Of a stretch of DNA of 64,000 nucleotides, positions 8,891 through 62,988 are shown in pieces. The stretch spans positions 1 through 64,000 of the IMG/VR virus record IMGVR_UViG_3300044825_003153; one strand, written 5' to 3'. How positions within the stretch are numbered: the first letter of the stretch is position 1; every line of letters begins with the position of its first letter. A model generated the notes under the pieces. The model did not search any database. It had not been told where the DNA came from and saw only the letters and a list, made by a program, of their open reading frames with translations. A program made the position numbers and the translations under genes. Source of the stretch: a virus.

Positions 8891-9751
8891 ATGCCCCCGC
8901 TCGTCATCCGCGCCAGCTCGCTGTCGGCTTATCCCGACTGCAGCCTGAGAACCGCAGCTCATTCGCAGGCCGATCTGTTCGCGGCCAAGGGTGTCACGTT
9001 GCACCCGGCCCGGACCAATGTCGGCGCCCTGATCGGCTCGGGCGTGCACGCCGGCGCCGAGCTCGCTCTCAAGGGTCGGATGAACGGCGAGCGCGTGCCG
9101 CAGTCGACCTGCGAGGATGCGGCGATCGGCGAGTTCCGCGCGCGCCGGGAGAAGGAAGCCGGCGCGGCACGGCTGATCGTCGACGAGACCGCCGGCGATG
9201 CGAACGCCTGCGAGCGGCAGGTACGACGCATGGTCCACCGCTACCGCCAGGACGTGGTCGAGACCGCCCGGCCGTTGCTGGTCGAGCGCCGCCTTGAGGC
9301 CGAAGTCATCGACGGCGTCATCCTGTCAGGACAGGGCGACCTCCTGCATCTGGACGCCACCGCCACCGGTGACGAGCAGGTTGTCCGCGACCTGAAGTCG
9401 ACCCGGCGGCACATGGCGCAGCCGATGATCCACGCGCCCCAGCTCGGCGGCTACTCCCTGCTGTACCGGTCGCGCGGCTGGACCCCGAACCGGGCCCAGC
9501 TCGACGTGCTGCCCAGAGTGCGGCTTGAGAAGCCGCAGCCGCCGGTGACCACCGCACCGCTCGCGATCGCCGAGACCGAGGAGATCGCCCACGCGGTTGT
9601 CCACGACTTTGCCGGGAAGCTGCTCGCGTTCCGCGAGGACGGCGAGACGTCGCGCTTCCTGGTGAACCCCAGATCCTTCCTGTGCAGCCAGAAGTTCTGC
9701 CGGCTCTACGGGAAGGAGGCGTGCCCAGCAACCAGAGGACTGAAGCTGTGA
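8891..9751 (+). CDS. PD-(D/E)XK exonuclease, RecB/Cas4-like
   Basis: A 286-residue protein from ATG 8891 behind GGAGGGAAAGGG. Nuclease motifs in order: GVHAGAE (His53), GQGDLL (Asp150), VRDLKST (Asp167-x-Lys169) and QLGGYSLL (Gln184, Tyr188), the RecB/Cas4 arrangement. Cys17 near the N-terminus plus Cys265, Cys270 and Cys278 near the C-terminus suggest an iron-sulfur cluster as in AddB and Cas4, though the spacing is not canonical. Paired with RecT next door, it would resect double-strand ends to give 3-prime tails for annealing. Confidence 0.85.
   Translation: MPPLVIRASSLSAYPDCSLRTAAHSQADLFAAKGVTLHPARTNVGALIGSGVHAGAELALKGRMNGERVPQSTCEDAAIGEFRARREKEAGAARLIVDETAGDANACERQVRRMVHRYRQDVVETARPLLVERRLEAEVIDGVILSGQGDLLHLDATATGDEQVVRDLKSTRRHMAQPMIHAPQLGGYSLLYRSRGWTPNRAQLDVLPRVRLEKPQPPVTTAPLAIAETEEIAHAVVHDFAGKLLAFREDGETSRFLVNPRSFLCSQKFCRLYGKEACPATRGLKL
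9724..9738 (+). promoter_or_regulatory. CCCAGCAAC leader motif before recT
   Basis: CCCAGCAACCAGAGG inside the end of the nuclease gene, 24 bases from motif start to the GTG at 9748. It supports that GTG as the start. No hairpin precedes it, as expected within coding DNA. Confidence 0.5.
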
Positions 9752-13829: not shown

Positions 13830-13837
13830 GTCGGCGC

Positions 13838-13882
13838 GCGGGCGGCTCCGGCCGCCCGCCTGCCCCTCCCAGCAACCGGAGA
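13838..13882 (+). promoter_or_regulatory. hairpin plus CCCAGCAAC leader
   Basis: GCGGGCGGC (13838-13846) pairs with GCCGCCCGC (13851-13859) around TCCG; CCCAGCAACCGGAG begins at 13868, 20 bases before ATG 13888. Single-hairpin version of the recurrent leader. Confidence 0.65.
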
Positions 13883-13887
13883 CGACC

Positions 13888-14469
13888 ATGTTCCTCCTGT
13901 ACAAGGCCGCGACCACCGGGCTCCCCGTGTGGAAGGCGGCCGACGACGACGCCAGCCAGCCCCACATCGTCGAGCTGGTCGCCATGCTGTGCAACAGCAC
14001 CGGCGACCGCGTCGAGACGCTGTGCCTGATCGTACGACCCGACGGCTGGGAGATCCCCGCCCAGTCGACGGCGATCCACGGGATCACCGAGGTCGAGGCC
14101 AAAGCCTCGCCGATCGACGAACAGACCGCGCTCGGCCGGTTCCTCGGGATGATGGTGAAGGCGCACACGCGGGTCGGCTGGAACGAGCCGTTCGACAGCC
14201 GCATCATCCGGATCGCGCTCGCGCGCTACCTGCCGGAGACGGTCGAGGGCTGGGGCCGGCAAACCGCGATCTGCGCCATGCGCCAGACCCTGGACTACCT
14301 CGCCGAGACCGACCCGGGAACGTTCCACGGCCGCACGCTGAAGCTGCAGGCGGCCTGGGATCACCTGTACCCGTCCGAGCCGCAGGACGTGACCGAGAGC
14401 ACCCTCGATACCGTCGAGGCCTGCCGGCGCCTGTTCTTCGCGACAAAGCTCCGGGGAGGGGAGCGGTGA
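13888..14469 (+). CDS. DnaQ-fold exonuclease-like protein, catalytic residues missing
   Basis: A 193-residue protein aligned by eye with DEDD exonucleases. Motif I, normally D-T-E-T-T-G-L, reads K-A-A-T-T-G-L (residues 6-12), losing both catalytic acids. HGITEVEA (64-71) and VGWNEPFDSR (97-105) match the motif II surroundings, with Asp103 kept. In motif III the expected His is Thr169 while Asp174 remains. It is therefore probably inactive as a nuclease and may bind DNA ends, RNA or a host exonuclease partner. Preceded by the hairpin/CCCAGCAAC leader. Confidence 0.7.
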   Translation: MFLLYKAATTGLPVWKAADDDASQPHIVELVAMLCNSTGDRVETLCLIVRPDGWEIPAQSTAIHGITEVEAKASPIDEQTALGRFLGMMVKAHTRVGWNEPFDSRIIRIALARYLPETVEGWGRQTAICAMRQTLDYLAETDPGTFHGRTLKLQAAWDHLYPSEPQDVTESTLDTVEACRRLFFATKLRGGER

Positions 14470-15900: not shown

Positions 15901-15914
15901 TCCAGCAACAGGGG
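15901..15914 (+). promoter_or_regulatory. TCCAGCAAC leader motif without hairpin
   Basis: TCCAGCAACAGGGG starts four bases after the protease stop and 23 bases before GTG 15924. No stem-loop is visible upstream. Confidence 0.45.
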
Positions 15915-17371: not shown

Positions 17372-17596
17372 TCACTCGCCATCGGCGTCTAGCCTCATGC
17401 TGGCCGGGTCGGAGCGGTCGCCGGTCACGAAGATCCACGGGTGGTTGTCGACGATCTCCAGCACCAGCTCTGGGCCTAGACCAAGGCCGATCGCCGCCTC
17501 GCCAATGGTCAAAGGCTTCCCGTTCCCCAGCTTGGGATAGAGCCAGCCCTCCAAGCGGGGGAACAGCTCTCGCATGGCGTCAACGTCCATCACCAT
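17372..17596 (-). CDS. hypothetical protein
   Basis: A 74-residue protein; ATG 17596 overlaps the upstream stop (ATGA). Residues 20-55 (GKPLTIGEAAIGLGLGPELV) suggest a helix-turn-helix-like fold. No family recognised. Confidence 0.6.
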   Translation of the reverse strand: MVMDVDAMRELFPRLEGWLYPKLGNGKPLTIGEAAIGLGLGPELVLEIVDNHPWIFVTGDRSDPASMRLDADGE

Positions 17597-18039
17597 CACC
17601 CTTGGTCCATCGCCGCTTCCAGGCACTCGACTTCCACAAAGGATTGGGCGTTGGCGTAGCCGCGGCCGGCGAAGGGCTCGGCCGCCTTGCGCAAGGCCTC
17701 GACAATCTTCGGGATGTCGGCCTCGGTGAGCGAATCGTCGCCGCAGCTGATCTGCACCCCGATGTGCACGTAGGCCAAAGGACTGACCCGCTCGAGCCAG
17801 TACCGGCGGACACGACGACCCTGCTCCTCTTCCAGCTTGGTCCTGACGATCCGGTATCGAGGTCCGGTCTCGCCACCGACGGTGAACCTGGTCCCGGCAG
17901 TCATCGCCTCAAGCATCGGCCCGTTGACCGCGTGAGCGAGCGGGACGGTGACCGTCTCCACCAGCCCGCTGTCTTCGTCTTTCTCGACCTGCACATCGCC
18001 TGTGAAGTTGAACCAGAGATCACCCTCGGCCATCGGCAT
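17596..18039 (-). CDS. hypothetical protein
   Basis: A 147-residue, mainly beta-rich protein starting MPMAEGDLWFNFTGDV; an alternative ATG is at 18033. The C-terminal half has a helix with EADIPKIVEALRKA. It overlaps the ribbon-helix-helix gene by 20 bases. No family recognised. Confidence 0.6.
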   Translation of the reverse strand: MPMAEGDLWFNFTGDVQVEKDEDSGLVETVTVPLAHAVNGPMLEAMTAGTRFTVGGETGPRYRIVRTKLEEEQGRRVRRYWLERVSPLAYVHIGVQISCGDDSLTEADIPKIVEALRKAAEPFAGRGYANAQSFVEVECLEAAMDQG

Positions 18040-18196
18040 CTTCCCGTTGCTGGCGCCTCGCCAGCTCGCGGTCGATCGCGGCCCGGATCAGTTGGCCGGT
18101 GGTCTCGCCGGCGGCGAGCAGCGCCCGGATGCGGGCGAGCGTGCCGGGGAGCCAGCGGATCAGGTACGTCTCGGAGAACCGGGGCGGGCGGGGCAT
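18020..18196 (-). CDS. ribbon-helix-helix (Arc/CopG-like) regulator
   Basis: A 58-residue protein. A short beta strand (TYLIRWLP) followed by LARIRALLAAGETTGQLIRA and AIDRELARRQQ matches the ribbon-helix-helix fold of small dimeric repressors. It is the first gene of the leftward five-gene operon, with two perfect palindromes 14-35 bases upstream of its start, so it likely represses its own operon and perhaps the divergent one at 18423. Confidence 0.7.
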   Translation of the reverse strand: MPRPPRFSETYLIRWLPGTLARIRALLAAGETTGQLIRAAIDRELARRQQREDADGRG

Positions 18197-18402: not shown

Positions 18403-18417
18403 CCCAGCAACAGGAGA
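18403..18417 (+). promoter_or_regulatory. CCCAGCAAC leader motif
   Basis: CCCAGCAACAGGAG, 20 bases from motif start to ATG 18423. The upstream 200 bases carry no clean GGTGC hairpin. It lies at the head of a rightward operon. Confidence 0.55.
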
Positions 18418-55101: not shown

Positions 55102-55320
55102 TAAGGGTCCAAGCCGTCCATGCTTTGACGCCTCGTCCTATGCCCGCAATCGGGGCCTGCAGCGTCCGATTTTCTTGCATCCTGGCCGTTTGCCCGCGCG
55201 GTTCATGGGGCGAGCGTCCTATCTGGGCCACGGCCTGGGGAACGCTCCACTTTCCCCAGCGTTCGCCGATCGTTCGCCGTGGTGTGCATTTTCCCCGCAC
55301 CTTTTGCACCTTGACCGGGC

Positions 55321-55960
55321 CTCAGGGCTCGCCGGCGGGGCCTGGGCCTCCCCTCAGGGCCTTCCAGGCGCCCAGGGCCTCCCCTTCCCCTCAGGGCTGG
55401 GCCTCAGGGCCTTCCAGGGCCTTCCAGGGCTCCCCTCAGGGCCTCCCAGGGCCTCAGGGCCTCAGGTCCGCACCTATCCCCGTCCGGTCCGGCAAGGCGG
55501 GGCCTCAGGGCCTCCCCTGGGGAGCTCGGGCGGGCCTGGGCCTCCCCTTCCCCTTCCATCCGGCGGGCCTCAGGGCCTGGGCCTCGCCTGGGGGTTCCTC
55601 CCAGGGCCTGGGCCTCGGCTCCCCTCGGCTCCCCTCGGCTCCCCTCCCCTCGGCTCCCCAGGCCGGACCGGGCGGGCCTCCCCTCGGCTCCCAGGGCCTC
55701 GGCTCCCCTTCCCCTCCCTTCCCAGGGCCTCCCCTCAGCTCGGCTCCCAGGGCCTCCCCTGGGGCGCCTGGGGGCGCTTCCCAGGGCCTCGGCTCCCAGG
55801 GCCTCCCCTTCATCCCCTCCCCAGGGCCTCGGCTCCCTACGGGCCTCCCAGGGCCTCCCCTGGGCCTTTCCCCTCCCCGGGGCCTCCCCGCCAAAGGGCA
55901 ACCCTCAGGGCCCGATCGCGCCCAGGGCCCCTCAGGGCCTCACCAGGGCCCGGCGGCCTG
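55321..55960. repeat. about 640 bp of C/G-rich degenerate repeats
   Basis: Built from recurring CAGGGCCTC, CTCGGCTCCC and CCCCTCAGGGCCTT words on the + strand, with almost no A or T. Unit length is irregular and not a multiple of three, and several reading frames on both strands are open only because stops need A/T. It lies directly upstream of the terminase small subunit gene. Candidate packaging site, replication origin or terminase-binding array; no iteron of fixed spacing is obvious. Confidence 0.85.
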
Positions 55961-56054
55961 CCCGCCCTACCCTCACCCTTCCGGGCGGACCGTTCGCGTT
56001 CGTTCACGGTCCGGGCGTTCCTATCCGGGCTGGGAATATGCTCCTGCCCTGGCC

Positions 56055-56071
56055 ATCCGATTTTTCTGGAT
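56055..56071. promoter_or_regulatory. operator-like site
   Basis: ATCCGATTTTTCTGGAT, matching the operator ATCCGATTTTATCGGAT in 15 of 17 positions on the aligned strand. It lies between the repeat block and the rightward gene cluster, where repressor control would be expected. Confidence 0.5.
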
Positions 56072-56339
56072 TTTTCAACCCATGCGCCTACCCTTCCCTT
56101 GCCCTTCGGGGCGGGGCGGAGCCATCGGGCTCCCCTCCCTTCCCCTCCCCTCCGGGGGCGGGGGCGCTCTTTGAACCCAACCGGCCGCCCGCGAACTACC
56201 CGGGCCTAGGCTTGCCCCTAGGAACCGCTGGCGCGGGCAACATCGACTCCCATGGGCAAGGTCCGACCATCCGGCCATCCGGCCATCCGGTCACCTCCCC
56301 GCCCGGGCGTTTCGGCGATCCGGCGATCCCCAGCTAGGG

Positions 56340-56552
56340 ATAGCGAGTTCTGAATCCAGTAGGAAACGCGGCACCTAGTATCGCATCGGCTAGATTGTAC
56401 GAAACACAAGCGATGGCCTTTGATCGTTCTAATCGTATGGTTTCCTAGCGCAAGTCACCCAATGCAAGATTGGGCAAAAGCGCGCTCCTAACCGTTGCTT
56501 TCTCACGTTGCACACTACGGGGCGTCCGTCGGGCATTAGTCCGGCGGGCGTT
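56340..56552 (+). promoter_or_regulatory. AT-richer gene-free stretch, probable promoter for the right gene block
   Basis: No gene. This is one of the few AT-rich parts of the window (around ATCGTATGGTTTCC and GATTGTACGAAACAC). A hairpin CCCAAT-GCAAG-ATTGGG lies at about 56457-56475. I cannot assign a -35/-10 pair with confidence, but the first of the leader modules begins at its right end. Confidence 0.45.
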
Positions 56553-56616
56553 CCCGCATGTCTCGACCAAGTCGGGCCATGCGGGAGCGCTTCGCTCCCT
56601 TCCCAGCAACGGAGAG
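56553..56616 (+). promoter_or_regulatory. double-hairpin CCCAGCAAC leader (1)
   Basis: CCCGCATG (56553-56560) can pair with CATGCGGG (56578-56585). GGGAGC (56583-56588) pairs with GCTCCC (56594-56599). The two stems share three bases and so exclude one another. CCCAGCAACGGAGAG starts at 56602, 20 bases before ATG 56622. Confidence 0.7.
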
Positions 56617-56621
56617 AGAAC

Positions 56622-56825
56622 ATGTCGAACGGCGCCAAGATCCAGGTGCGCGTCAAGCAGCTCCATCGCAAAGGCGACTACGCCAGGCGGTGGGCACGCG
56701 GTCAGCTCACGTTGGCCGGTCAAGCCACGCTGCGCGAGCGTCGCACCTCGGAATATCAGGCGGCGACCGAGCAGCTCAGGCGCGAGGTCGAGTTCTGGAA
56801 CGGCAATCTGGCGTTCACGGTGTAA
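56622..56825 (+). CDS. small basic hypothetical protein
   Basis: A 67-residue protein starting MSNGAKIQVRVKQLHRKGDY; basic N-terminal half and a helix (SEYQAATEQLRREVEFW) at the end. First gene of the rightward block behind a leader module. Probably nucleic-acid binding or a host-interaction peptide; no family recognised. Confidence 0.65.
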   Translation: MSNGAKIQVRVKQLHRKGDYARRWARGQLTLAGQATLRERRTSEYQAATEQLRREVEFWNGNLAFTV

Positions 56826-56830
56826 CGGCC

Positions 56831-56962
56831 ATGTGGATGGTCGTGATCACCAAGCCGTCCGGCGAGAGCCGCACGGTCTACACGCCAAGTGCCAAGCGAG
56901 CCCATCGGTATCTCAACCGTCGCCGGAGCAATCCGGCGGTGGTTGTCCGGCGGCTCTTCTAG
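56831..56962 (+). CDS. 43-residue hypothetical protein
   Basis: Starts MWMVVITKPSGESRTVYTPS and ends with a basic RRRSNPAVVVRRLF stretch. It lies five bases after the previous gene and ends 13 bases before the next leader stem. Small and basic; no family. Confidence 0.5.
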   Translation: MWMVVITKPSGESRTVYTPSAKRAHRYLNRRRSNPAVVVRRLF

Positions 56963-56974
56963 CAAGTTCACCTG

Positions 56975-57037
56975 GAACCGTCCCGCGCGAGACGCGGGGC
57001 GGTTCATGGTGCATTTGCACCGTCCAGCAACGGAGGA
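56975..57037 (+). promoter_or_regulatory. double-hairpin CCCAGCAAC leader (2)
   Basis: GAACCG-T-CCCGCG (56975-56987) pairs with CGCGGG-G-CGGTTC (56993-57005). GGTGCA (57008-57013) pairs with TGCACC (57016-57021). TCCAGCAACGGAGGA starts at 57023, 22 bases before ATG 57045. Confidence 0.8.
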
Positions 57038-57044
57038 AGTTGAA

Positions 57045-57659
57045 ATGGCGAAGATCAAGACGATCGAGACCGCGGGCGAGGCCCGGCTGTCGCTGCGCGC
57101 GCTGAAGGCGACCCGCAGCAAGGTCGAGCCGCTCCTGACCTCGACCGAGAAGCGGTATCGCGATGAGGCGCAGCTGAAGATCACGACGATCGACAAGAAG
57201 ATCGCCGATCTTGTGCAGCGCTTCCCCGAGATCCAGCAGTCGCAGGCCGCGAAGAAGCCCGTGCGCGACGAGCTCACCGGCAAGATCGAGGTCGACCGGC
57301 AGCTGGTCCTGCAGCGTCTGCAGGCGTGCGACGATGCCATCATGGCTGAGGTCGCGCGAATCTTCGCGAGCCACGCGAGCCGGAAGGCCCTGGAAGCCGC
57401 CCAGGCGGTGATCACGGGCGCCGGCGAGGTCGAGAGCGAGAGCGAGGGCGAGCCCCAGCAGCAGACCGATGGCGGTGCCATCCTGATGCTGCCGGCGCCC
57501 ACGGTCGAGACGACCGAGATCCAGGGCGATGTCGAGGATGGCCTCGTGATCGAGGGCACTTCGGAGGTCGTGGATGAGATCGAGCAGCCCGCGCCGGCGG
57601 CGCCCGAGAGGGCCCCGAGCCGTCGCGAGCGTCGGGAGGCCCGTCGTCGGGCCGCCTAG
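57045..57659 (+). CDS. coiled-coil hypothetical protein
   Basis: A 204-residue protein. Residues 1-120 are helical and charged (ETAGEARLSLRALKATRSKV, STEKRYRDEAQLKITTIDKK, HASRKALEAAQAV). The rest is acidic with an AILMLPAPTVETTEIQ stretch and a very basic tail (RRERREARRRAA). No catalytic motif. Possibly a host-takeover or DNA-associated factor. Confidence 0.65.
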   Translation: MAKIKTIETAGEARLSLRALKATRSKVEPLLTSTEKRYRDEAQLKITTIDKKIADLVQRFPEIQQSQAAKKPVRDELTGKIEVDRQLVLQRLQACDDAIMAEVARIFASHASRKALEAAQAVITGAGEVESESEGEPQQQTDGGAILMLPAPTVETTEIQGDVEDGLVIEGTSEVVDEIEQPAPAAPERAPSRRERREARRRAA

Positions 57660-57676
57660 CGCAGATGCAGCTAGGG

Positions 57677-57749
57677 CAGCCGTGCCGCTCACCAGCGGGC
57701 GGCTGACCCGATGGTGCACCTGTAGCGCACCGCTCCCAGCAACGGAGGA
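57677..57749 (+). promoter_or_regulatory. double-hairpin CCCAGCAAC leader (3)
   Basis: CAGCCG..CCGCT (57677-57689) pairs with AGCGG..CGGCTG (57694-57705). GGTGC (57713-57717) pairs with GCACC (57727-57731). CCCAGCAACGGAGGA starts at 57735, 19 bases before ATG 57754. Confidence 0.8.
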
Positions 57750-57753
57750 AGCT

Positions 57754-57951
57754 ATGCAGAACCTGAAGATCACGACGAACGGCACCAAGGTGACGCTCGA
57801 GTTCGACACGTCGAAGCCGGCCCAGCAGGCCGCCAAGCTGTCGAGCACCGGCAAGACCAGGCTGCTCGCCGGCACCGGCGGGGCCTCCCCGGTCGACGTC
57901 CCGGGCTGCCCGGGGCTGAAAGTGGCCCTGAACGTCATGATCCCGGCCTAG
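57754..57951 (+). CDS. small beta-rich hypothetical protein
   Basis: A 65-residue protein starting MQNLKITTNGTKVTLEFDTS; strands with LLAGTGGASPVDVPG and KVALNVMIPA suggest a compact beta fold. No family recognised. Flanked by leader modules on both sides, so it is a separate translation unit. Confidence 0.6.
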   Translation: MQNLKITTNGTKVTLEFDTSKPAQQAAKLSSTGKTRLLAGTGGASPVDVPGCPGLKVALNVMIPA

Positions 57952-57967
57952 CCGGAGTTCACCAGGA

Positions 57968-58043
57968 GAACCGCCCCGTGTGCCAGTCGCGCGCGGGACG
58001 GTTCGTGGTGCACTTCGCACCGCTTCCCAGCAACGGATGGAGA
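57968..58043 (+). promoter_or_regulatory. double-hairpin CCCAGCAAC leader (4)
   Basis: GAACCG (57968-57973) pairs with CGGTTC (57999-58004) with inner CCCG/CGGG pairing. GGTGC (58007-58011) pairs with GCACC (58017-58021). CCCAGCAACGGATGG starts at 58026, 23 bases before ATG 58049. Confidence 0.8.
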
Positions 58044-58048
58044 GACAG

Positions 58049-59230
58049 ATGACGCAAGACATCGCCACCCTGGATGCCCCCGAGGTCGGTCGTCGGCAGG
58101 TTGACACCCGCCGCGGATCGGCAAACACGGAGGTCTCCAGTCAGTGGGCGAGGCGTCCGGCCGACGAGAAGTTCCTGACCCTGGACTCCCTGGCCGAGCA
58201 CGTCCTGACCCGCCGCGAGCGCAGCGCCCAGACCGTCGTCGACCTGCCCAAGCTGCAGTTCGACGGCGACTCCGAGCGCGACGAGATCGTGGTGGATACG
58301 GACTACGGGCCGGCGACCTTCACGAACTGGTCGTTCGGTCAGATGTGCTCGACCGTGGGCTACAGCGCCCAGGAGCTCCGCAAGCTGCCCGTGTATCTCG
58401 CCGCCGCGGTCGTGCAGACCATGGCGATGCAGACCGGCGGGCAGGCCATGGAGTACGTCGAGAACCTCGGCAGCGGCGGGCTGATGCGGGCGCTCACGGG
58501 ACCGGCCTATGGCCGCATCTATGATGCGGACGTGGTCCAGAACGTGCAGCGGATCGCGAAGTCGGGGGCTTGGAAGGTGCCTGGGTGCCTCAATTGGGCC
58601 GACGGCAGCTACGATCCCCATACGCCGGTGACGAAGGACACGACGACCCTGTTCGCGTCCGACCGCGACGTCTTCATGTTCCTGTGCGACGACACCCACC
58701 CGATCGAGGTGGGCAAGCTCAGGAACGGCGACCCGGACCTGATGTTTCGCGGCTTCATCGTTTCCAACTCGGAGACGGGGGCCGGGAAGTTCAGGCTCGC
58801 GACGATGTACCTGCGGGGCGTGTGCTGCAATCGGATCCTCTGGGGCGTGGAAGGCTTCAAGGAGATCGAGATCCGGCACAACAACGCCGCCCCGGAGCGC
58901 TTCGTCGACGAGATCATGCCCTCGCTCGACTCCTACGCCAGCCTGGATGCCTCCCGGCTGAGCCGCGGTGTCGCGGCGGCCAAGGGCCTGATCGCCGCCC
59001 GGACCGAGGACAAGCAGGTCGAGTTCCTGGTCGACCTCGGCTTCAGCCAGAAGGTCGCGAAGGACATCATCCTGACCGGCGAGAAGCAGGAGGGTGCTCG
59101 CCCGTCGAGTGTCTGGGAGTTCGCCCAGGCAATCACGGCGCACGCCCAGGCGCTGAATCACCACCAGGATGATCGGTTCGCCATGGAGGCCGTCGCCGGC
59201 AAGCTGCTCGACGACGTCAAGATCGACTGA
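58049..59230 (+). CDS. DUF932 / phage-plasmid-like protein
   Basis: A 393-residue protein. DTDYGPATFTNWSFGQMCST and SAQELRKLPVYLAAAVVQTM fit the N-terminal part. RDVFMFLCDDTHPIEV and PDLMFRGFIVSNSETGAGKF, then RLATMYLRGVCCNRILWGVE, fit the core of the DUF932 family (found in phages and plasmids). The biochemical role is unknown, possibly in replication or DNA protection. C-terminal helices (SLDASRLSRGVAAAKGLIAA) follow. Confidence 0.85.
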   Translation: MTQDIATLDAPEVGRRQVDTRRGSANTEVSSQWARRPADEKFLTLDSLAEHVLTRRERSAQTVVDLPKLQFDGDSERDEIVVDTDYGPATFTNWSFGQMCSTVGYSAQELRKLPVYLAAAVVQTMAMQTGGQAMEYVENLGSGGLMRALTGPAYGRIYDADVVQNVQRIAKSGAWKVPGCLNWADGSYDPHTPVTKDTTTLFASDRDVFMFLCDDTHPIEVGKLRNGDPDLMFRGFIVSNSETGAGKFRLATMYLRGVCCNRILWGVEGFKEIEIRHNNAAPERFVDEIMPSLDSYASLDASRLSRGVAAAKGLIAARTEDKQVEFLVDLGFSQKVAKDIILTGEKQEGARPSSVWEFAQAITAHAQALNHHQDDRFAMEAVAGKLLDDVKID

Positions 59231-59249
59231 GGTCCGAGCCCAGCTAGGG

Positions 59250-59313
59250 CGGCCGGGGGTGCGATCCCCGGCCGACCCGATGGTGCGCTTGGCACCGCTT
59301 CCAGCAACGGAGA
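59250..59313 (+). promoter_or_regulatory. double-hairpin CCCAGCAAC leader (5)
   Basis: CGGCCGGGG (59250-59258) pairs with CCCCGGCCG (59266-59274). GGTGC (59282-59286) pairs with GCACC (59292-59296). TCCAGCAACGGAGAA starts at 59300, 20 bases before ATG 59320. Confidence 0.8.
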
Positions 59314-59319
59314 AAGAGC

Positions 59320-60048
59320 ATGGAGTTGACCGACCGAGAGCGCGACAAGCTGATCGCCAAGATCCGCGCGCTCCAGGCCAAGACGGTGAAGCGCGGTTCG
59401 ACCGAAGCCGAGGCCATGGCCGCGGCCGCCAAGGTCGACCAGCTGCTCAGGGACTACAACCTGACCCTCACCGAAGAGGTCGTGCGCAACGCGAATCACA
59501 TCCGTGGTTCGCTCGACCTCACCCTGGCGACAGGGACGTTCATCCACCCCGTGCAGTTCGCCCTGTACGGCGTCGAGGCCTTCTGCGAGGTCAAGGTCTG
59601 GCTGTCGTCGCGCAACAACCGCAAGTTCGTGGTGATGTTCGGCGAGCACCAGGACGTCCTCGTCTCTCAGTACCTCGTCGGCCTGATGCGGGCCGCCATC
59701 GACACCGAGTACGAGGCCTGGAAGCGCGACCAGCAGCGTCACGGGCTGAAGGTGAACCCCTGGGCGTTCAGGAACGCCATGGGCAAGAAGCTCGGCGCCC
59801 GCCTTGTGGCGATGAAGCGGGCGCGGGACACCGAGGTGACCGCTACCACGGGCACCTCCCTGGTCGTGGTCAAGCAGCAGGCCGTCGAGGAGAGCTTCAA
59901 GAGCCTCGACCTGAAGCTGCGGTCGAAGAAGAGCACCTCCGGGCGGGTCAGCGACGCCGCTGCCGCCTTGGCCGGCATGGCCGCAGCCGATCGGGTCGCG
60001 CTGAATCCGGGCCTCGGCGGGCCTCAGGCCCGCTCCGCCTTGAAGTAG
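59320..60048 (+). CDS. DUF2786-family protein
   Basis: A 242-residue protein. RDKLIAKIRALQAKTVKRGS, then TEAEAMAAAAKVDQLLRDYN is the DUF2786 N-terminal pattern. The second half has FGEHQDVLVSQYLVGLMRAA, NAMGKKLGARLVAMKRARD and a basic end. These proteins are frequent in phages and plasmids; function unknown. Confidence 0.85.
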   Translation: MELTDRERDKLIAKIRALQAKTVKRGSTEAEAMAAAAKVDQLLRDYNLTLTEEVVRNANHIRGSLDLTLATGTFIHPVQFALYGVEAFCEVKVWLSSRNNRKFVVMFGEHQDVLVSQYLVGLMRAAIDTEYEAWKRDQQRHGLKVNPWAFRNAMGKKLGARLVAMKRARDTEVTATTGTSLVVVKQQAVEESFKSLDLKLRSKKSTSGRVSDAAAALAGMAAADRVALNPGLGGPQARSALK

Positions 60049-60058
60049 AGCCCAGCTG

Positions 60059-60124
60059 GAACGGTCCGCGGTGCGATCGCGGATCGTTCATGGTGCGCTC
60101 TGCACCTCTCCCAGCAACGGAGGA
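60059..60124 (+). promoter_or_regulatory. double-hairpin CCCAGCAAC leader (6)
   Basis: GAACGG-TCCGCG (60059-60070) pairs with CGCGGA-TCGTTC (60078-60089) with one mismatch. GGTGC (60092-60096) pairs with GCACC (60102-60106). CCCAGCAACGGAGGA starts at 60110, 19 bases before ATG 60129. Confidence 0.8.
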
Positions 60125-60128
60125 TAGC

Positions 60129-60719
60129 ATGTCGAACGACAAACACCGCGTCGCGGTGGGGTTTCGTCGCGATAACCGCTACGGCACCGACCATCTGATC
60201 GCGTGGCCGGCCATACTCGTGCACGCCGACGATCGCAGCCTGCGCTTCCTGCGCAGCTATGTGTCGTCCTACGACGAGAAGCTCGATCTCGAGAGCCTGC
60301 AGCTCGACTGTTTCGCGTCGGATACGAACGGCCAGATCGTCGATGTCGGTTGGGTCACCTACCGGCAGCCCTACGATGTCGACATCGCTCGCGCCAAGCG
60401 GATGGTGAAGACCCTGGAAAGCGCCAGCCGCGCTTACCAGCGGCACGAGCCGGTCGACTTTGGCGACAAGGTCAGGTGCCTGGCCTTGTGGCTCAAGGCA
60501 GAGATCATCGTCGAGCAGATCAACCACCCCGGCCGCAACGTCGAGCTGGACGTGCACAGCATCCCGAATGGGATCTACAGCCTGCGGCAGGCGTATGCGC
60601 GAAATGGAGGCCGAAGCCAAGGTCAAGCTGGCCTTGAAGGCTGCCTGATGCAGACCCTCGCCACGGCCATCGTGGTGGCCCTGCTCGGGCCGCTGATCGT
60701 GATCTGCCTGTTCTGGTAG
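60129..60719 (+). CDS. hypothetical protein, possibly two genes joined by a frameshift
   Basis: A 196-residue protein as read. Residues 1-160 look coherent (beta/alpha, WPAILVHADDRSLRFLRS, WLKAEIIVEQINHPGRNVEL). Around 60595 another frame gives a better C-terminus (MREMEAEAKVKLALKAA, ending TGA at 60646-60648), and the following ATG 60648 would start a 23-residue membrane peptide MQTLATAIVVALLGPLIVIC. So the open frame may fuse a truncated first gene with a tiny membrane gene. No family recognised. Confidence 0.6.
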   Translation: MSNDKHRVAVGFRRDNRYGTDHLIAWPAILVHADDRSLRFLRSYVSSYDEKLDLESLQLDCFASDTNGQIVDVGWVTYRQPYDVDIARAKRMVKTLESASRAYQRHEPVDFGDKVRCLALWLKAEIIVEQINHPGRNVELDVHSIPNGIYSLRQAYARNGGRSQGQAGLEGCLMQTLATAIVVALLGPLIVICLFW

Positions 60720-60731
60720 GCCCAGTGTGTG

Positions 60732-60781
60732 CGGCCGGGGAGTTGGAGTGCTCCCCGGCCGGCACCGTCCCAGCAACAGGA
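60732..60781 (+). promoter_or_regulatory. single-hairpin CCCAGCAAC leader (7)
   Basis: CGGCCGGGGAG (60732-60742) pairs perfectly with CTCCCCGGCCG (60751-60761). The GGTGC stem is missing; only GGCACC precedes CCCAGCAACAGGAC (from 60769). Candidate start is ATG 60793. Confidence 0.6.
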
Positions 60782-60792
60782 CAGCCGACCAT

Positions 60793-60987
60793 ATGGCGGC
60801 TGAATCCGCCCGCCGCCACCGAAAAGATTCGGATGCTCCGGCAGTCCCCGGTCGAGGCCGAGGCCTGCCGGTGCCGCCAGATCGGCCGCACCACACTCCC
60901 AGCAACGGAGACCAGGATGAAGATCGAGCAGATGAGCCGCCAAGCTGCGGACCTGATCGGCCGCCGCATGGCCGAGGTCGCGGCTGA
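60793..60987 (+). CDS. doubtful small ORF behind a leader
   Basis: A 64-residue ORF starting MAAESARRHRKDSDAPAVPG, placed 24 bases from the start of a leader motif. It overlaps the next gene by 71 bases and is rich in Arg, Pro and Gly. It may be a decayed gene whose leader survives, or a leader peptide. Not supported by family. Confidence 0.25.
   Translation: MAAESARRHRKDSDAPAVPGRGRGLPVPPDRPHHTPSNGDQDEDRADEPPSCGPDRPPHGRGRG
60898..60910 (+). promoter_or_regulatory. CCCAGCAAC leader motif (8)
   Basis: CCCAGCAACGGAG at 60898, 19 bases before ATG 60917. Upstream GGTGC (about 60870) and GCACC (about 60888) can still pair with a longer loop. Confidence 0.65.
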
Positions 60988-61318
60988 CCTCGCCCGCGAA
61001 ATGGGACTGTCGGTCAAGTACGCCGGGGGCACCTACGGCGAGACCAGCTGCGTGACGAAGCTGGAGTTCACCGTGGCAGGCGGGGCCACCATCCATCAGG
61101 AGCGTGACCGCAAGTTCTTCCGCACCTGCGCCGCGCTCTACGGCCTGAGCGCCAGCGATCTGGATCGGGAGTTCGAGCATCCGCGGCAAGGTCGCATGAA
61201 GATCGTCGGCATGACCGCTCGCGGGAAGAATTGCATCATCCTGAAGGGCGCCGATGGCAAGAGCTTCCGGGCCAGCCCGGAGTTCGTCAAGCACTTCATC
61301 GGCAAGCAGGCCGCCTAG
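60917..61318 (+). CDS. hypothetical protein
   Basis: A 133-residue protein. N-terminal helix (SRQAADLIGRRMAEVAADLA) then beta region (VTKLEFTVAGGATIHQERDR), FFRTCAALYGLSASDLDRE, and a final VGMTARGKNCIILKGADGKS segment with an SH3-like feel. No family recognised. Confidence 0.6.
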   Translation: MKIEQMSRQAADLIGRRMAEVAADLAREMGLSVKYAGGTYGETSCVTKLEFTVAGGATIHQERDRKFFRTCAALYGLSASDLDREFEHPRQGRMKIVGMTARGKNCIILKGADGKSFRASPEFVKHFIGKQAA

Positions 61319-61325
61319 CATTGGC

Positions 61326-61413
61326 ACCGCCCGGCCGCGCGCCGGGCGGTCCATCTTCTCATTTCATCTGTTGCAGCATACAATAGGGACTTTCACTCCC
61401 AGCAACCGGAGGA
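61326..61413 (+). promoter_or_regulatory. hairpin plus CCCAGCAAC leader (9)
   Basis: ACCGCCCGGC (61326-61335) pairs perfectly with GCCGGGCGGT (61341-61350) around CGCGC. A 40-base AT-richer stretch (TTCATCTGTTGCAGCATACA) replaces the second stem and may hold a promoter. CCCAGCAACCGGAGG starts at 61398, 21 bases before GTG 61419. Confidence 0.65.
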
Positions 61414-61418
61414 GTTTC

Positions 61419-62231
61419 GTGGGAAAGACTACAATCGAATGGACGGAGTTAACCTGGAACCCGTTTGTCGGGTGCGAGATCGTGTCCGCAGGGTGCACCA
61501 ACTGCTACGCCATGAAGATGGCGCATCGGCTGGAAGGCATGATGACCGCCTCGTACATGGGCACGACGAAGGTCGTGAACGGTAACACGGTCTGGACCGG
61601 CAGGATCAACCGATCCTCGGACGCGACGATGCAGATGCCCCTGCGCAAGCCTGGATCGCATCTGTTCTTCGTCAACTCGATGTCTGACTTCTGGCACGAG
61701 AACGCCAAGGACGAATGGCGCAAGGAAGCGCTCGACATCATGCGACGCTGCCCGCGCCACCAGTTCCAGGTCCTGACGAAGCGGCCGCAGAACATCCAGC
61801 CGATCCTCGATCGGATGGAGGAGAAGCTGCCGGACAATCTCTGGCTCGGCTGCACGGTCGAGGATCATCGGGTCCGCGACCGCATCGACATCCTGCGCCA
61901 GGTGCCGGCCTCGATCCGGTTCCTGTCGGTGGAGCCTATGGTTGCCGAGCCTGGTCAGATGGACCTCACCGACATCCATTGGGTGATCGGCGGCGGCGAA
62001 AGTGGTCCGGGCGCCCGGCGAATGAAGCCGGCATGGGCCAGAGAACTTCGCGATCAATGCTTGGAGCAAGGCGTCAAGTATTTTTTCAAGCAGTGGGGGA
62101 CCTACTGGAACAACCCGCTGGTCGTTGAACAGAAGAAGAGCATCTACGAAGCCCAAGCTCTCGATCCGCATGGTAAAGGCGGATCGCTTCTCGACGGCGT
62201 GGCCTGGAAACAGTTCCCGCGCCTGCCATGA
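61419..62231 (+). CDS. phage Gp37/Gp68-family (DUF5131) protein
   Basis: A 270-residue protein from GTG 61419. IEWTELTWNPFVGCEIVSAG followed by CTNCYAMKMAHR, later FFVNSMSDFWHE, FQVLTKRPQNI, NLWLGCTVEDHR, and HWVIGGGESGPGARRM are the family hallmarks; the conserved C-x-x-x-CTNCYA cysteines suggest metal or Fe-S binding. It resembles radical-SAM-like TIM-barrel proteins, but the activity is not established. The stop overlaps the HNH start. Confidence 0.9.
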   Translation: MGKTTIEWTELTWNPFVGCEIVSAGCTNCYAMKMAHRLEGMMTASYMGTTKVVNGNTVWTGRINRSSDATMQMPLRKPGSHLFFVNSMSDFWHENAKDEWRKEALDIMRRCPRHQFQVLTKRPQNIQPILDRMEEKLPDNLWLGCTVEDHRVRDRIDILRQVPASIRFLSVEPMVAEPGQMDLTDIHWVIGGGESGPGARRMKPAWARELRDQCLEQGVKYFFKQWGTYWNNPLVVEQKKSIYEAQALDPHGKGGSLLDGVAWKQFPRLP

Positions 62232-62566
62232 GGGGCTGTCACGGCAATCATGCCCGAGGCGGCAAGCACCCAGCTTGGTCCCCAAGCAAGATGCTGTCCG
62301 CTGATGGCTACGTGAAGATCCGGGTCGGCAAGACCCATCCCCTCGCCTTCGGCCGTGGATACGCCTACGAGCACCTTGTCGTGTGGGTGTCCGCGGGCAA
62401 CCCCCGGCCGCCGAAGGGCTACCTGCTGCACCACCGGGATGAAGACCGGACCAACAACCGGCTGGAGAACCTGGAGTGCATCAGCCGGGTCGAGCACAAC
62501 CGCCTGCACAACGCGCAGCGCGGTCGTGATCCGGCCACGGGACGGCTCCTGCCAAGGTCGAACTAA
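62228..62566 (+). CDS. HNH endonuclease
   Basis: A 112-residue protein; ATG overlaps the previous stop (ATGA). GYLLHHRDEDRTNNRLENLE with CISRVEHNRLHN is an HNH_3-type core: HH-x-D then N-x-x-x-N-L and the terminal H. N-terminal GYVKIRVGKTHP and YAYEHLVVW strands are typical. Single-domain nuclease, possibly a homing endonuclease or packaging accessory; nothing next to it looks like an intron. Confidence 0.9.
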   Translation: MRGCHGNHARGGKHPAWSPSKMLSADGYVKIRVGKTHPLAFGRGYAYEHLVVWVSAGNPRPPKGYLLHHRDEDRTNNRLENLECISRVEHNRLHNAQRGRDPATGRLLPRSN

Positions 62567-62578
62567 CGGACGCAGGCG

Positions 62579-62640
62579 GTATCCCCGGTGAGCAGTCGCC
62601 GGGGATACAGGGTGCGCCCGCACCATCCCAGCAACGGAGA
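62579..62640 (+). promoter_or_regulatory. double-hairpin CCCAGCAAC leader (10)
   Basis: GTATCCCCGG (62579-62588) pairs perfectly with CCGGGGATAC (62599-62608). GGTGC (62611-62615) pairs with GCACC (62620-62624). CCCAGCAACGGAGAC starts at 62627, 20 bases before ATG 62647. Confidence 0.8.
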
Positions 62641-62646
62641 CACGAC

Positions 62647-62988
62647 ATGACCGAGTTCACGGTCCGGTGGCCTGATCCGCCGGACGGGACCCTGCAGGCC
62701 TATGGCCGCAACGGGTCGGTCAAGCAGACCGGCGTCCATGTGTGGGACGTCGGGTCCTACATCATCGTCCGGGCGATCAGCAGCCGCGGCCACGTCAGCG
62801 ACGCGGCGAACCTGAAGCTGCCGGCCGAGCCCACCAAGCTGATCGAGCTCGCCACCGGCCTGATCGCCATGGCGAACGCGATGCAGGCCGAGCAGACCGC
62901 CAAGCGGCGCAATGCTGCAGGTGCGAGCAACTCTCCGGGAATCTCGGATAGTTCGCCCTCCCCTGCCCTGCGTGTCCTGGGAGGCTGA
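62647..62988 (+). CDS. hypothetical protein
   Basis: A 113-residue protein starting MTEFTVRWPDPPDGTLQAYG with a beta-rich first half (VHVWDVGSYIIVRAISSRGH), then a helix (AEPTKLIELATGLIAMANAM) and a Ser/Pro-rich tail. No family recognised. Confidence 0.6.
   Translation: MTEFTVRWPDPPDGTLQAYGRNGSVKQTGVHVWDVGSYIIVRAISSRGHVSDAANLKLPAEPTKLIELATGLIAMANAMQAEQTAKRRNAAGASNSPGISDSSPSPALRVLGG

What the first reader, a model, noticed from the sequence alone, without database searches (positions are those of the whole stretch)
56553..62640. Recurrent hairpin-hairpin-CCCAGCAACGGAG leader before most rightward genes
Fourteen copies of C/T-CCAGCAAC (motif starts 9724, 13868, 15901, 18403, 56602, 57023, 57735, 58026, 59300, 60110, 60769, 60898, 61398, 62627) sit 19-24 bases before start codons, all on rightward genes. 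In the 56.5-62.6 kb block most are preceded by GGTGC-N(2-9)-GCACC (57008, 57713, 58007, 59282, 60092, 62611) and by an upstream stem with changing sequence but conserved position. Covarying stems with a fixed motif imply selection on RNA structure or a protein-bound leader. The SAS/ESAS elements of cluster K mycobacteriophages are the nearest known analogue; sequence and host differ. Possible roles: per-gene translational control, RNase processing that isolates each cistron, terminator-reinitiation units, or recombination targets.
Basis: partly seen in the sequence, partly recalled or inferred. Interest (0 to 1): 0.92.

Follow-up and report, generated by a model that had tools for sequence, protein, structure and literature searches.

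The report
Switchable RNA spacers between phage genes
One uncultured bacterial virus separates almost all its non-overlapping rightward genes with copies of the same folded RNA element, whose stems keep changing sequence but always stay paired and which can flip between two shapes; it is strong evidence for an undescribed RNA device that probably cuts, insulates or controls each gene's message.

Summary
G000 is a 70,942-nt virus record. CCAGCAAC occurs 17 times on the + strand shortly before a start codon (about 0.2 expected). Nine full elements, three of them beyond the window, fill the gap between a stop codon and the next Shine-Dalgarno sequence: N5 – 7 nt (CCAGCTA) – hairpin 1 – 2 nt – GGTGC – N5' – GCACC – CCCAGCAAC – GGAG. 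This gives a long irregular hairpin (form A) competing with the GGTGC:GCACC hairpin (form B), or a pseudoknot. Across nine copies, 16 of 17 form-A pairs show compensatory changes and 0/500 shuffles reach the covariation. Rfam has no match. Pattern, covariance-model and architecture searches found the element nowhere else, including a relative sharing the structural genes. SAS/ESAS of cluster K phages is a positional analogue only. RNA structure is near certain. My preferred mechanism, RNase III-type intercistronic processing leaving a 5'-capping hairpin before each ribosome site, is inferred (about 0.38). A protein-bound or ribosome-responsive translational operator is the main rival.

The parts
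56961..57047 (+). Full element 57.0: N5 56963-56967 (CAAGT, starts directly after the upstream stop TAG), linker, hairpin 1 56975-57005, GGTGC hairpin 57008-57021, motif TCCAGCAAC 57023-57031, SD GGAGG, ATG 57045
   Evidence: (CM 74.4 bits)
57660..57756 (+). Full element 57.7: N5 57662-57666 (CAGAT, one A.C mismatch), hairpin 1 about 57674-57709, GGTGC hairpin 57713-57731 (long 9-nt loop), motif 57735-57743, ATG 57754
   Evidence: (63.6 bits)
57952..58051 (+). Full element 58.0: N5 57954-57958 (GGAGT), hairpin 1 57968-58004, GGTGC hairpin 58007-58021, motif 58026-58034, ATG 58049 (DUF932-like gene)
   Evidence: (66.5 bits)
59233..59322 (+). Full element 59.3: N5 59235-59239 (CGAGC), linker CCAGCTA, hairpin 1 59247-59278, GGTGC hairpin 59282-59296, motif 59300-59308, ATG 59320 (DUF2786/DUF7168 gene)
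   Evidence: (89.7 bits)
60045..60131 (+). Full element 60.1: N5 60047-60051 (AGAGC, overlaps the stop TAG 60046-60048), linker CCAGCTG, hairpin 1 60059-60089, GGTGC hairpin 60092-60106 (loop GCTCT), motif 60110-60118, ATG 60129
   Evidence: 93.4 bits, best copy; also found by a motif-blind architecture scan
62565..62649 (+). Full element 62.6: N5 62567-62571 (CGGAC, one A.C mismatch; the next pair becomes G-C), hairpin 1 62579-62608, GGTGC hairpin 62611-62624, motif 62627-62635, ATG 62647
   Evidence: (54.8 bits)
56543..56624 (+). Variant element 56.6: long hairpin plus GGAGC-GCTTC-GCTCC in place of GGTGC...GCACC (the only compensatory change seen in hairpin 2), motif 56602-56610, ATG 56622
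   Evidence: CM E = 4e-4; fold
60731..60780 (+). Divergent or decayed copy: hairpin 60731-60762 ending in GGCACC, motif CCCAGCAACAGG 60769-60780
60828..60919 (+). Divergent copy with GGTGC...GCACC around a long loop, motif 60898-60906, ATG 60917
   Evidence: CM E = 0.011
61324..61421 (+). Core motif without the switch module: GC hairpin 61324-61352, sigma-70-like promoter 61356-61384, motif 61398-61406, GGAGG, GTG 61419 (DUF5131 gene)
13837..13890 (+). Left-arm copy: GC hairpin plus motif 13868-13876, CGGAG, ATG 13888 (DNA polymerase exonuclease-like subunit, phrog_192)
   Evidence: (E 0.29)
9724..9732 (+). Core motif only, inside the 3' end of the upstream gene, before the in-frame ATG 9751
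15901..15909 (+). Core motif only, before the start codon (GTG 15924)
18403..18411 (+). Core motif only, before ATG 18423

Best explanation
SHOWN: a family of sense-strand structured RNA elements forms the spacer at essentially every non-overlapping junction of the rightward genes at 56.9-66.4 kb. Each can fold as form A, a rod of lower stem N5:N5', a conserved, nearly symmetric internal loop CCAGCTA/AUGGUGC, and a 12-15 bp upper stem. It can also fold as form B, upper stem plus a separate GGUGC-N5'-GCACC hairpin. Both precede an invariant CCAGCAAC and the Shine-Dalgarno sequence. INFERRED: form A is an intercistronic processing signal of the T7 R1.1 type, cut by RNase III or a similar nuclease on the 3' side of the internal loop. 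The upstream message would keep hairpin 1 as its 3' end. The downstream message would start at or near GGUGC, refold into the GGUGC:GCACC hairpin as a 5' cap against decay, and present CCAGCAAC-GGAG as a standardised ribosome landing site. One long early transcript would thus become separately stable and separately initiated mRNAs. A ribosome terminating at the upstream stop would cover N5 and favour form B, delaying cutting while that gene is being translated.
For: Compensatory change in 16/17 pairs of form A, including 5/5 of N5:N5', with 0/500 shuffles reaching the score and collapse when the register is slid by 1-3 columns. Matched N5/loop pairing beats permuted pairing (48 of 50 pairs; register-free 120/200000, fixed register 0/200000). 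G.U wobbles on the + strand outnumber A.C 12 to 3, as expected of a sense RNA rather than a DNA cruciform (one-sided p 0.018). Forms A and B are close in predicted energy in all nine full copies (A minus B from -3.4 to +1.8 kcal/mol). In 5' truncations starting at or near GGTGC the second hairpin becomes the main fold in most copies, though not all. Elements sit only at gaps of about 78-100 nt, while abutting or overlapping genes lack them. N5 lies between 2 nt inside and 4 nt after the upstream stop codon in the six in-window copies. Motif-blind architecture scans recover six of the copies. T7 R1.1 is likewise a roughly 60-nt early-region intercistronic RNA with an internal loop (PMC6121014).
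Against: No transcript-end data. The T7 R1.1 internal loop is asymmetric (4/5 nt) and its flanking gene starts carry no invariant motif known to me. The invariant CCAGCAAC is not explained by processing alone. Hairpin 2 is nearly invariant, so its pairing rests on invariant complementarity plus one variant (56.6). Predicted Shine-Dalgarno accessibility does not change consistently between full and cut forms. The lower stem is short (5 bp plus 2-3 isolated pairs).
Confidence: 0.38

Rival explanations
1. Translational operator: a phage or host RNA-binding protein (or an sRNA) recognises the GGUGC hairpin, the CCAGCUA/AUGGUGC internal loop and/or CCAGCAAC beside the Shine-Dalgarno, switching all marked early genes together. 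The form A/B choice, set by ribosomes terminating on N5 or by the protein, is the control.
For: The 8-mer next to the Shine-Dalgarno is invariant at 17 starts, including left-arm replication genes without the switch module, which argues for recognition at initiation. N5 abuts the stop codon. Forms A and B are balanced. Marked genes are all rightward and the structural genes are unmarked.
Against: Shine-Dalgarno exposure does not differ consistently between forms. No candidate regulator was identified; several right-arm proteins have no family match. The mini-hairpin enclosing CAGCAAC shows no covariation (permutation p 0.27).
Confidence: 0.33
2. Passive insulator: strong hairpins protect the 3' end of the upstream message and block read-through interference (REP-like), and CCAGCAAC-GGAG is simply this phage's favoured strong ribosome site. 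No switching or cutting.
For: Perfect GC-rich stems with free sequence. Other gaps have hairpins without the module (67.5 kb, 61.3 kb).
Against: It does not explain covariation of N5 with the loop of hairpin 2, the fixed 7-nt linker, or the near-invariant GGTGC/GCACC.
Confidence: 0.17
3. DNA-level element such as ESAS: promoter/operator, replication or recombination site.
For: Position like ESAS (PMC3203893); inverted repeats.
Against: No promoter-like sequence at the full elements (only one in the region, at 61356-61384). Stem sequences are free while pairing is kept. Wobbles are biased to the sense strand. Orientation is strictly sense. Unlike ESAS, departures are compensated.
Confidence: 0.05
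4. Transcription terminator or attenuator units.
For: Two adjacent GC hairpins; the truncated 68.0 kb copy is followed by a T-rich stretch.
Against: No terminator-like site at the elements. The sequence after hairpin 2 is invariant CCAGCAACGGAG, not a U-tract.
Confidence: 0.05
5. Repeat produced by recent segmental duplication with chance hairpins.
For: 57.0 and 58.0 share some linker and stem letters.
Against: Stems average 48% identity (maximum 70%), flanking proteins are unrelated, nine different N5 sequences occur in ten copies, and 23 strong hairpins are present against 2-5 in shuffles.
Confidence: 0.02

Closest known systems
SAS/ESAS of cluster K mycobacteriophages (Pope et al. 2011, PMC3203893; PMC12699233; PMC11373665)
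   Same: A short fixed motif directly upstream of many start codons, all one orientation, mostly outside the structural module; a subset carries an upstream inverted repeat.
   Different: Different motif (SAS GGGATAGGAGCCC). ESAS repeats keep sequence and do not support RNA pairing, and they contain SigA-like promoters. Here stem sequences are free, pairing is conserved with compensation, no promoter is present, and a long-range N5:N5' helix exists.
T7 early-region RNase III processing signals (R1.1 type; PMC6121014)
   Same: Intercistronic irregular hairpin of similar size with upper stem, internal loop and lower stem, in a run of early genes.
   Different: R1.1 internal loop is asymmetric (4/5 nt). 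To my knowledge T7 signals lack a competing hairpin 2 and a fixed motif at the start site. Cleavage is not shown here.
17-bp palindromes of cluster O mycobacteriophages (PMC4351075)
   Same: More than 30 dispersed repeats with dyad symmetry in one phage group, many in short gaps.
   Different: Fixed sequence, partly inside genes, not tied to starts; DNA-like.
Pseudoknot/stop-codon-coupled leaders such as IncI/IncB repZ (recalled, not tested)
   Same: Loop-to-upstream pairing near a stop codon as a translation-coupled switch.
   Different: Single-locus replication control; here repeated before many unrelated genes.

Membership tests
SAS/ESAS (cluster K mycobacteriophages) | 13-bp SAS consensus GGGATAGGAGCCC just before start codons | tested here: not met
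   The motif is CCAGCAAC + Shine-Dalgarno; position alike, sequence not.
SAS/ESAS (cluster K mycobacteriophages) | ESAS: 17-bp imperfect inverted repeats with consensus sequence, not supporting RNA pairing, containing SigA-like promoters | tested here: not met
   Stems have free sequence and compensated pairing; no promoter at full elements; ESAS description.
RNase III processing signal (T7 R1.1 type) | Intercistronic irregular hairpin with upper stem, internal loop and lower stem | tested here: met
   Form A in nine copies; gaps only.
RNase III processing signal (T7 R1.1 type) | Cleavage by RNase III at the internal loop | not testable with these tools
   Needs 5'/3' end mapping with and without rnc.
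Known Rfam RNA family | Score above a family gathering threshold | tested here: not met
   No hit at gathering in the window; only unrelated sub-threshold hits.
Intrinsic terminators | GC stem followed by a U-tract | tested here: not met
   No terminator-like site at elements; the 68.0 kb truncated copy has a T-rich stretch further downstream.
Translational operator bound by a protein | A specific binding protein and effect on translation | not testable with these tools
   No candidate found by family search.

The most novel reading that the evidence does not exclude
A previously undescribed class of repeated two-state (or pseudoknotted) intercistronic RNA, used genome-wide by one phage as its universal gene spacer. 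The terminating ribosome on the upstream gene, or a phage protein, sets the shape of each spacer and thereby the processing or translation of the next gene.
Probability: 0.4. Interest if true: 0.88.

Novelty: new variant of a known kind. Interest (0 to 1): 0.74.

Why it matters
Start-associated repeats in cluster K phages were described in 2011 and their role is still called unclear in the papers read here. In this phage the repeat is, by covariation, an RNA fold with about ten natural compensatory variants in one genome, which makes the question directly testable by mutating one side or both. It offers a compact natural spacer that may turn one transcript into independently expressed genes, and a clear example of long-range pairing conserved between the loop of one hairpin and the bases next to the previous stop codon. 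The element was found in no other phage searched, so such systems may arise or be lost quickly.

Tried and rejected
(1) The pattern was mis-specified (NGGR excludes GGAG) and was redone. (2) Pattern scans of IMG/VR and GTDB genomes gave only isolated hits; those inspected look like chance, mostly coding. (3) hp3 (CTCC-CAGCAAC-GGAG mini-hairpin masking the Shine-Dalgarno): no covariation beyond the fixed motif (p 0.27). (4) A simple riboswitch in which form A masks the Shine-Dalgarno: predicted accessibility does not change consistently. (5) Repeated GGTATCCCC stem in 62.6 as a dispersed element: other occurrences are mostly coding or unrelated. (6) Relatives by TerL, DUF932-like, DUF2786-like and DUF5131 proteins: about 120 loci, none with the element by CM. 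(7) Cas6/Csy4-like nuclease hairpin: considered because hairpin 2 is a 5-bp stem with about a 5-nt loop; the variable loop and the absence of a matching gene among those searched argue against. (8) attC-like integron sites: considered, rejected by eye, no R'/R'' boxes.
Full report
Context. The window is bases 1-64000 of G000, a 70,942-base virus record. A leftward block carries terminase, portal/head-morphogenesis, major head and tail genes at about 21-55 kb. Rightward blocks lie at about 8.6-18 kb (exonuclease, SbcC-like protein, DNA polymerase exonuclease subunit) and from 56.5 kb to near the end of the record (DUF932-like, DUF2786/DUF7168, DUF5131 and many unknown proteins). No similar DNA is in the phage collection for 55-64 kb. 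The closest relative found, G001 (64.3 kb, TerL 66% identical), shares the structural module but not the right arm, and has no leader motif.

The observation. All 14 listed sites exist. The record holds 17 leader-positioned + strand copies of CCAGCAAC; Markov-shuffled genomes give 0.22. None of the one-mismatch versions sits in a comparable leader. Three further full elements lie beyond the window, with GGTGC at 64134, 64571 and 66332, and a truncated one without the core motif at 68005.

Anatomy. Between the stop codon of one gene and the Shine-Dalgarno of the next the order is N5, a 7-nt linker (commonly CCAGCTA, 7 nt in most copies), hairpin 1 (12-15 bp, free sequence), usually AT, GGTGC, N5', GCACC, 0-6 nt, YCCAGCAAC, GGAG. 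N5 runs from 2 nt inside the stop codon to 4 nt after it in the six in-window copies. Gaps holding an element are about 78-100 nt. Junctions without an element are abutting or overlapping genes (read; inference from ORF positions).

The missed pairing. N5 is complementary to N5', the loop of the GGTGC hairpin: AGAGC/GCTCT, TGAGC/GCTCA, CGAGT/ACTCG, CGAGC/GCTTG, GGAGT/ACTTC, CAAGT/ATTTG, CGACC/GGTTG, CGAGC/GTTCG, with 4 of 5 pairs in the copies at 57.7 and 62.6. Permuting loops among flanks reaches the observed 48/50 in 120 of 200,000 trials when the register is free, and in none when it is fixed. The fixed register was first chosen by eye, so the register-free value is the conservative one.

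Covariation. On the covariance-model alignment of nine distinct copies, the structure N5:N5' plus hairpin 1 pairs in 94.7% of cells (shuffles 67.2%). It shows changes on both sides in 16 of 17 pairs and 44 cells (shuffles 9.6 and 16.0), with a covariation score of 0.83 against 0.31, 0 of 500 shuffles reaching it. Sliding the partners by 1-3 columns drops pairing to 32-48%. The N5:N5' helix alone has 5 of 5 pairs with compensatory change. Caveats: the alignment was fitted to a structure taken from one copy, and the shuffles ignore relatedness. Stems average only 48% identity between copies, however, against 86% for the conserved blocks. Wobble pairs G.T exceed A.C by 12 to 3 on the sense strand (p 0.018), as expected for RNA read from this strand. 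A scan for the architecture alone, blind to motifs, finds six of these copies plus one chance site on the + strand, and one chance site on the - strand.

Two states. N5:N5' (form A) and GGTGC:GCACC (form B) compete: the MFE form A uses GGTGC as part of its internal loop, so they exclude each other unless a pseudoknot forms. Predicted energies differ by -3.4 to +1.8 kcal/mol in the nine full copies. In 5' truncations at or near GGTGC the second hairpin becomes the main fold in most, but not all, copies. GGTGC:GCACC is invariant in the full copies; the 56.6 variant has GGAGC...GCTCC, one compensatory change.

What it is not. Rfam: none. No promoter or terminator at the full elements. Pattern scans of IMG/VR and of GTDB genomes return isolated hits; those inspected look like chance. 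Blastn of single elements against phages and plasmids gives only marginal partial hits. The covariance model finds the element only in G000 among about 130 loci and ten other whole records. SAS/ESAS is a positional analogue, but its repeats do not support RNA pairing (PMC3203893) and contain promoters (PMC11373665).

Mechanism. My preferred reading is a T7 R1.1-like processing signal (PMC6121014). Form A is cut at the 3' side of its internal loop, hairpin 1 seals the upstream message, and GGUGC:GCACC seals the 5' end of the downstream message just before a standard ribosome site. It fits the A/B overlap, the near-invariant hairpin 2, the location and the strand bias. It does not by itself explain the invariant CCAGCAAC, which also stands alone before left-arm genes and at 61.4 kb behind a promoter. 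That motif points to a recognition event at initiation, and a protein or sRNA operator is almost as likely. The structure is shown; cutting, protein binding and ribosome control are inferred.

Limits. Only one genome has the element. Gene calls are from ORFs and codon-position GC, not from an annotation.

Noticed in passing
window 55120-56180: About 1 kb of low-complexity CCTCAGGGCCTCCCC-type repeats between the leftward structural block and the rightward right arm; possibly an origin, packaging or transcription boundary.
   Followed up: no
window 61356-61384: The only sigma-70-like promoter in 55-64 kb lies just upstream of the 61.4 kb leader and after a GC hairpin, so the DUF5131 gene probably starts its own transcript; its leader has the core motif but not the switch module.
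   Followed up: partly
window 18039-18053, - strand: A single CCAGCAACGGGAAG 6 nt before a possible start of a leftward ORF (17596-18039); probably chance, but the only leader-like copy on the - strand that I noted.
   Followed up: no
L124 5964-6040 (G000 67963-68039): Element copy that keeps N5:N5', hairpin 1 and the GGTGC hairpin but has lost CCAGCAAC and is followed by TGTTTATTTTT.
   Followed up: partly
window 59258-59265, 60071-60077; L124 5504-5534: The loop of hairpin 1 reads GGTGCGATC in three different hairpins although the stems differ, hinting at an extra recognition site or shared origin.
   Followed up: no
L196 3958 and 4661 (- strand): An unrelated viral contig with two neighbouring gene leaders containing CCAGCAAC; may be chance.
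   Followed up: no
L125: GCTAAGCCG occurs at least 14 times in a 9.4-kb viral contig with a DUF932-like gene (tandem or dispersed repeat).
   Followed up: no
window 9468-9566: ARAGORN calls a 99-nt tRNA-Glu (CTC) on the - strand, unusually long; may be false or degenerate.
   Followed up: no
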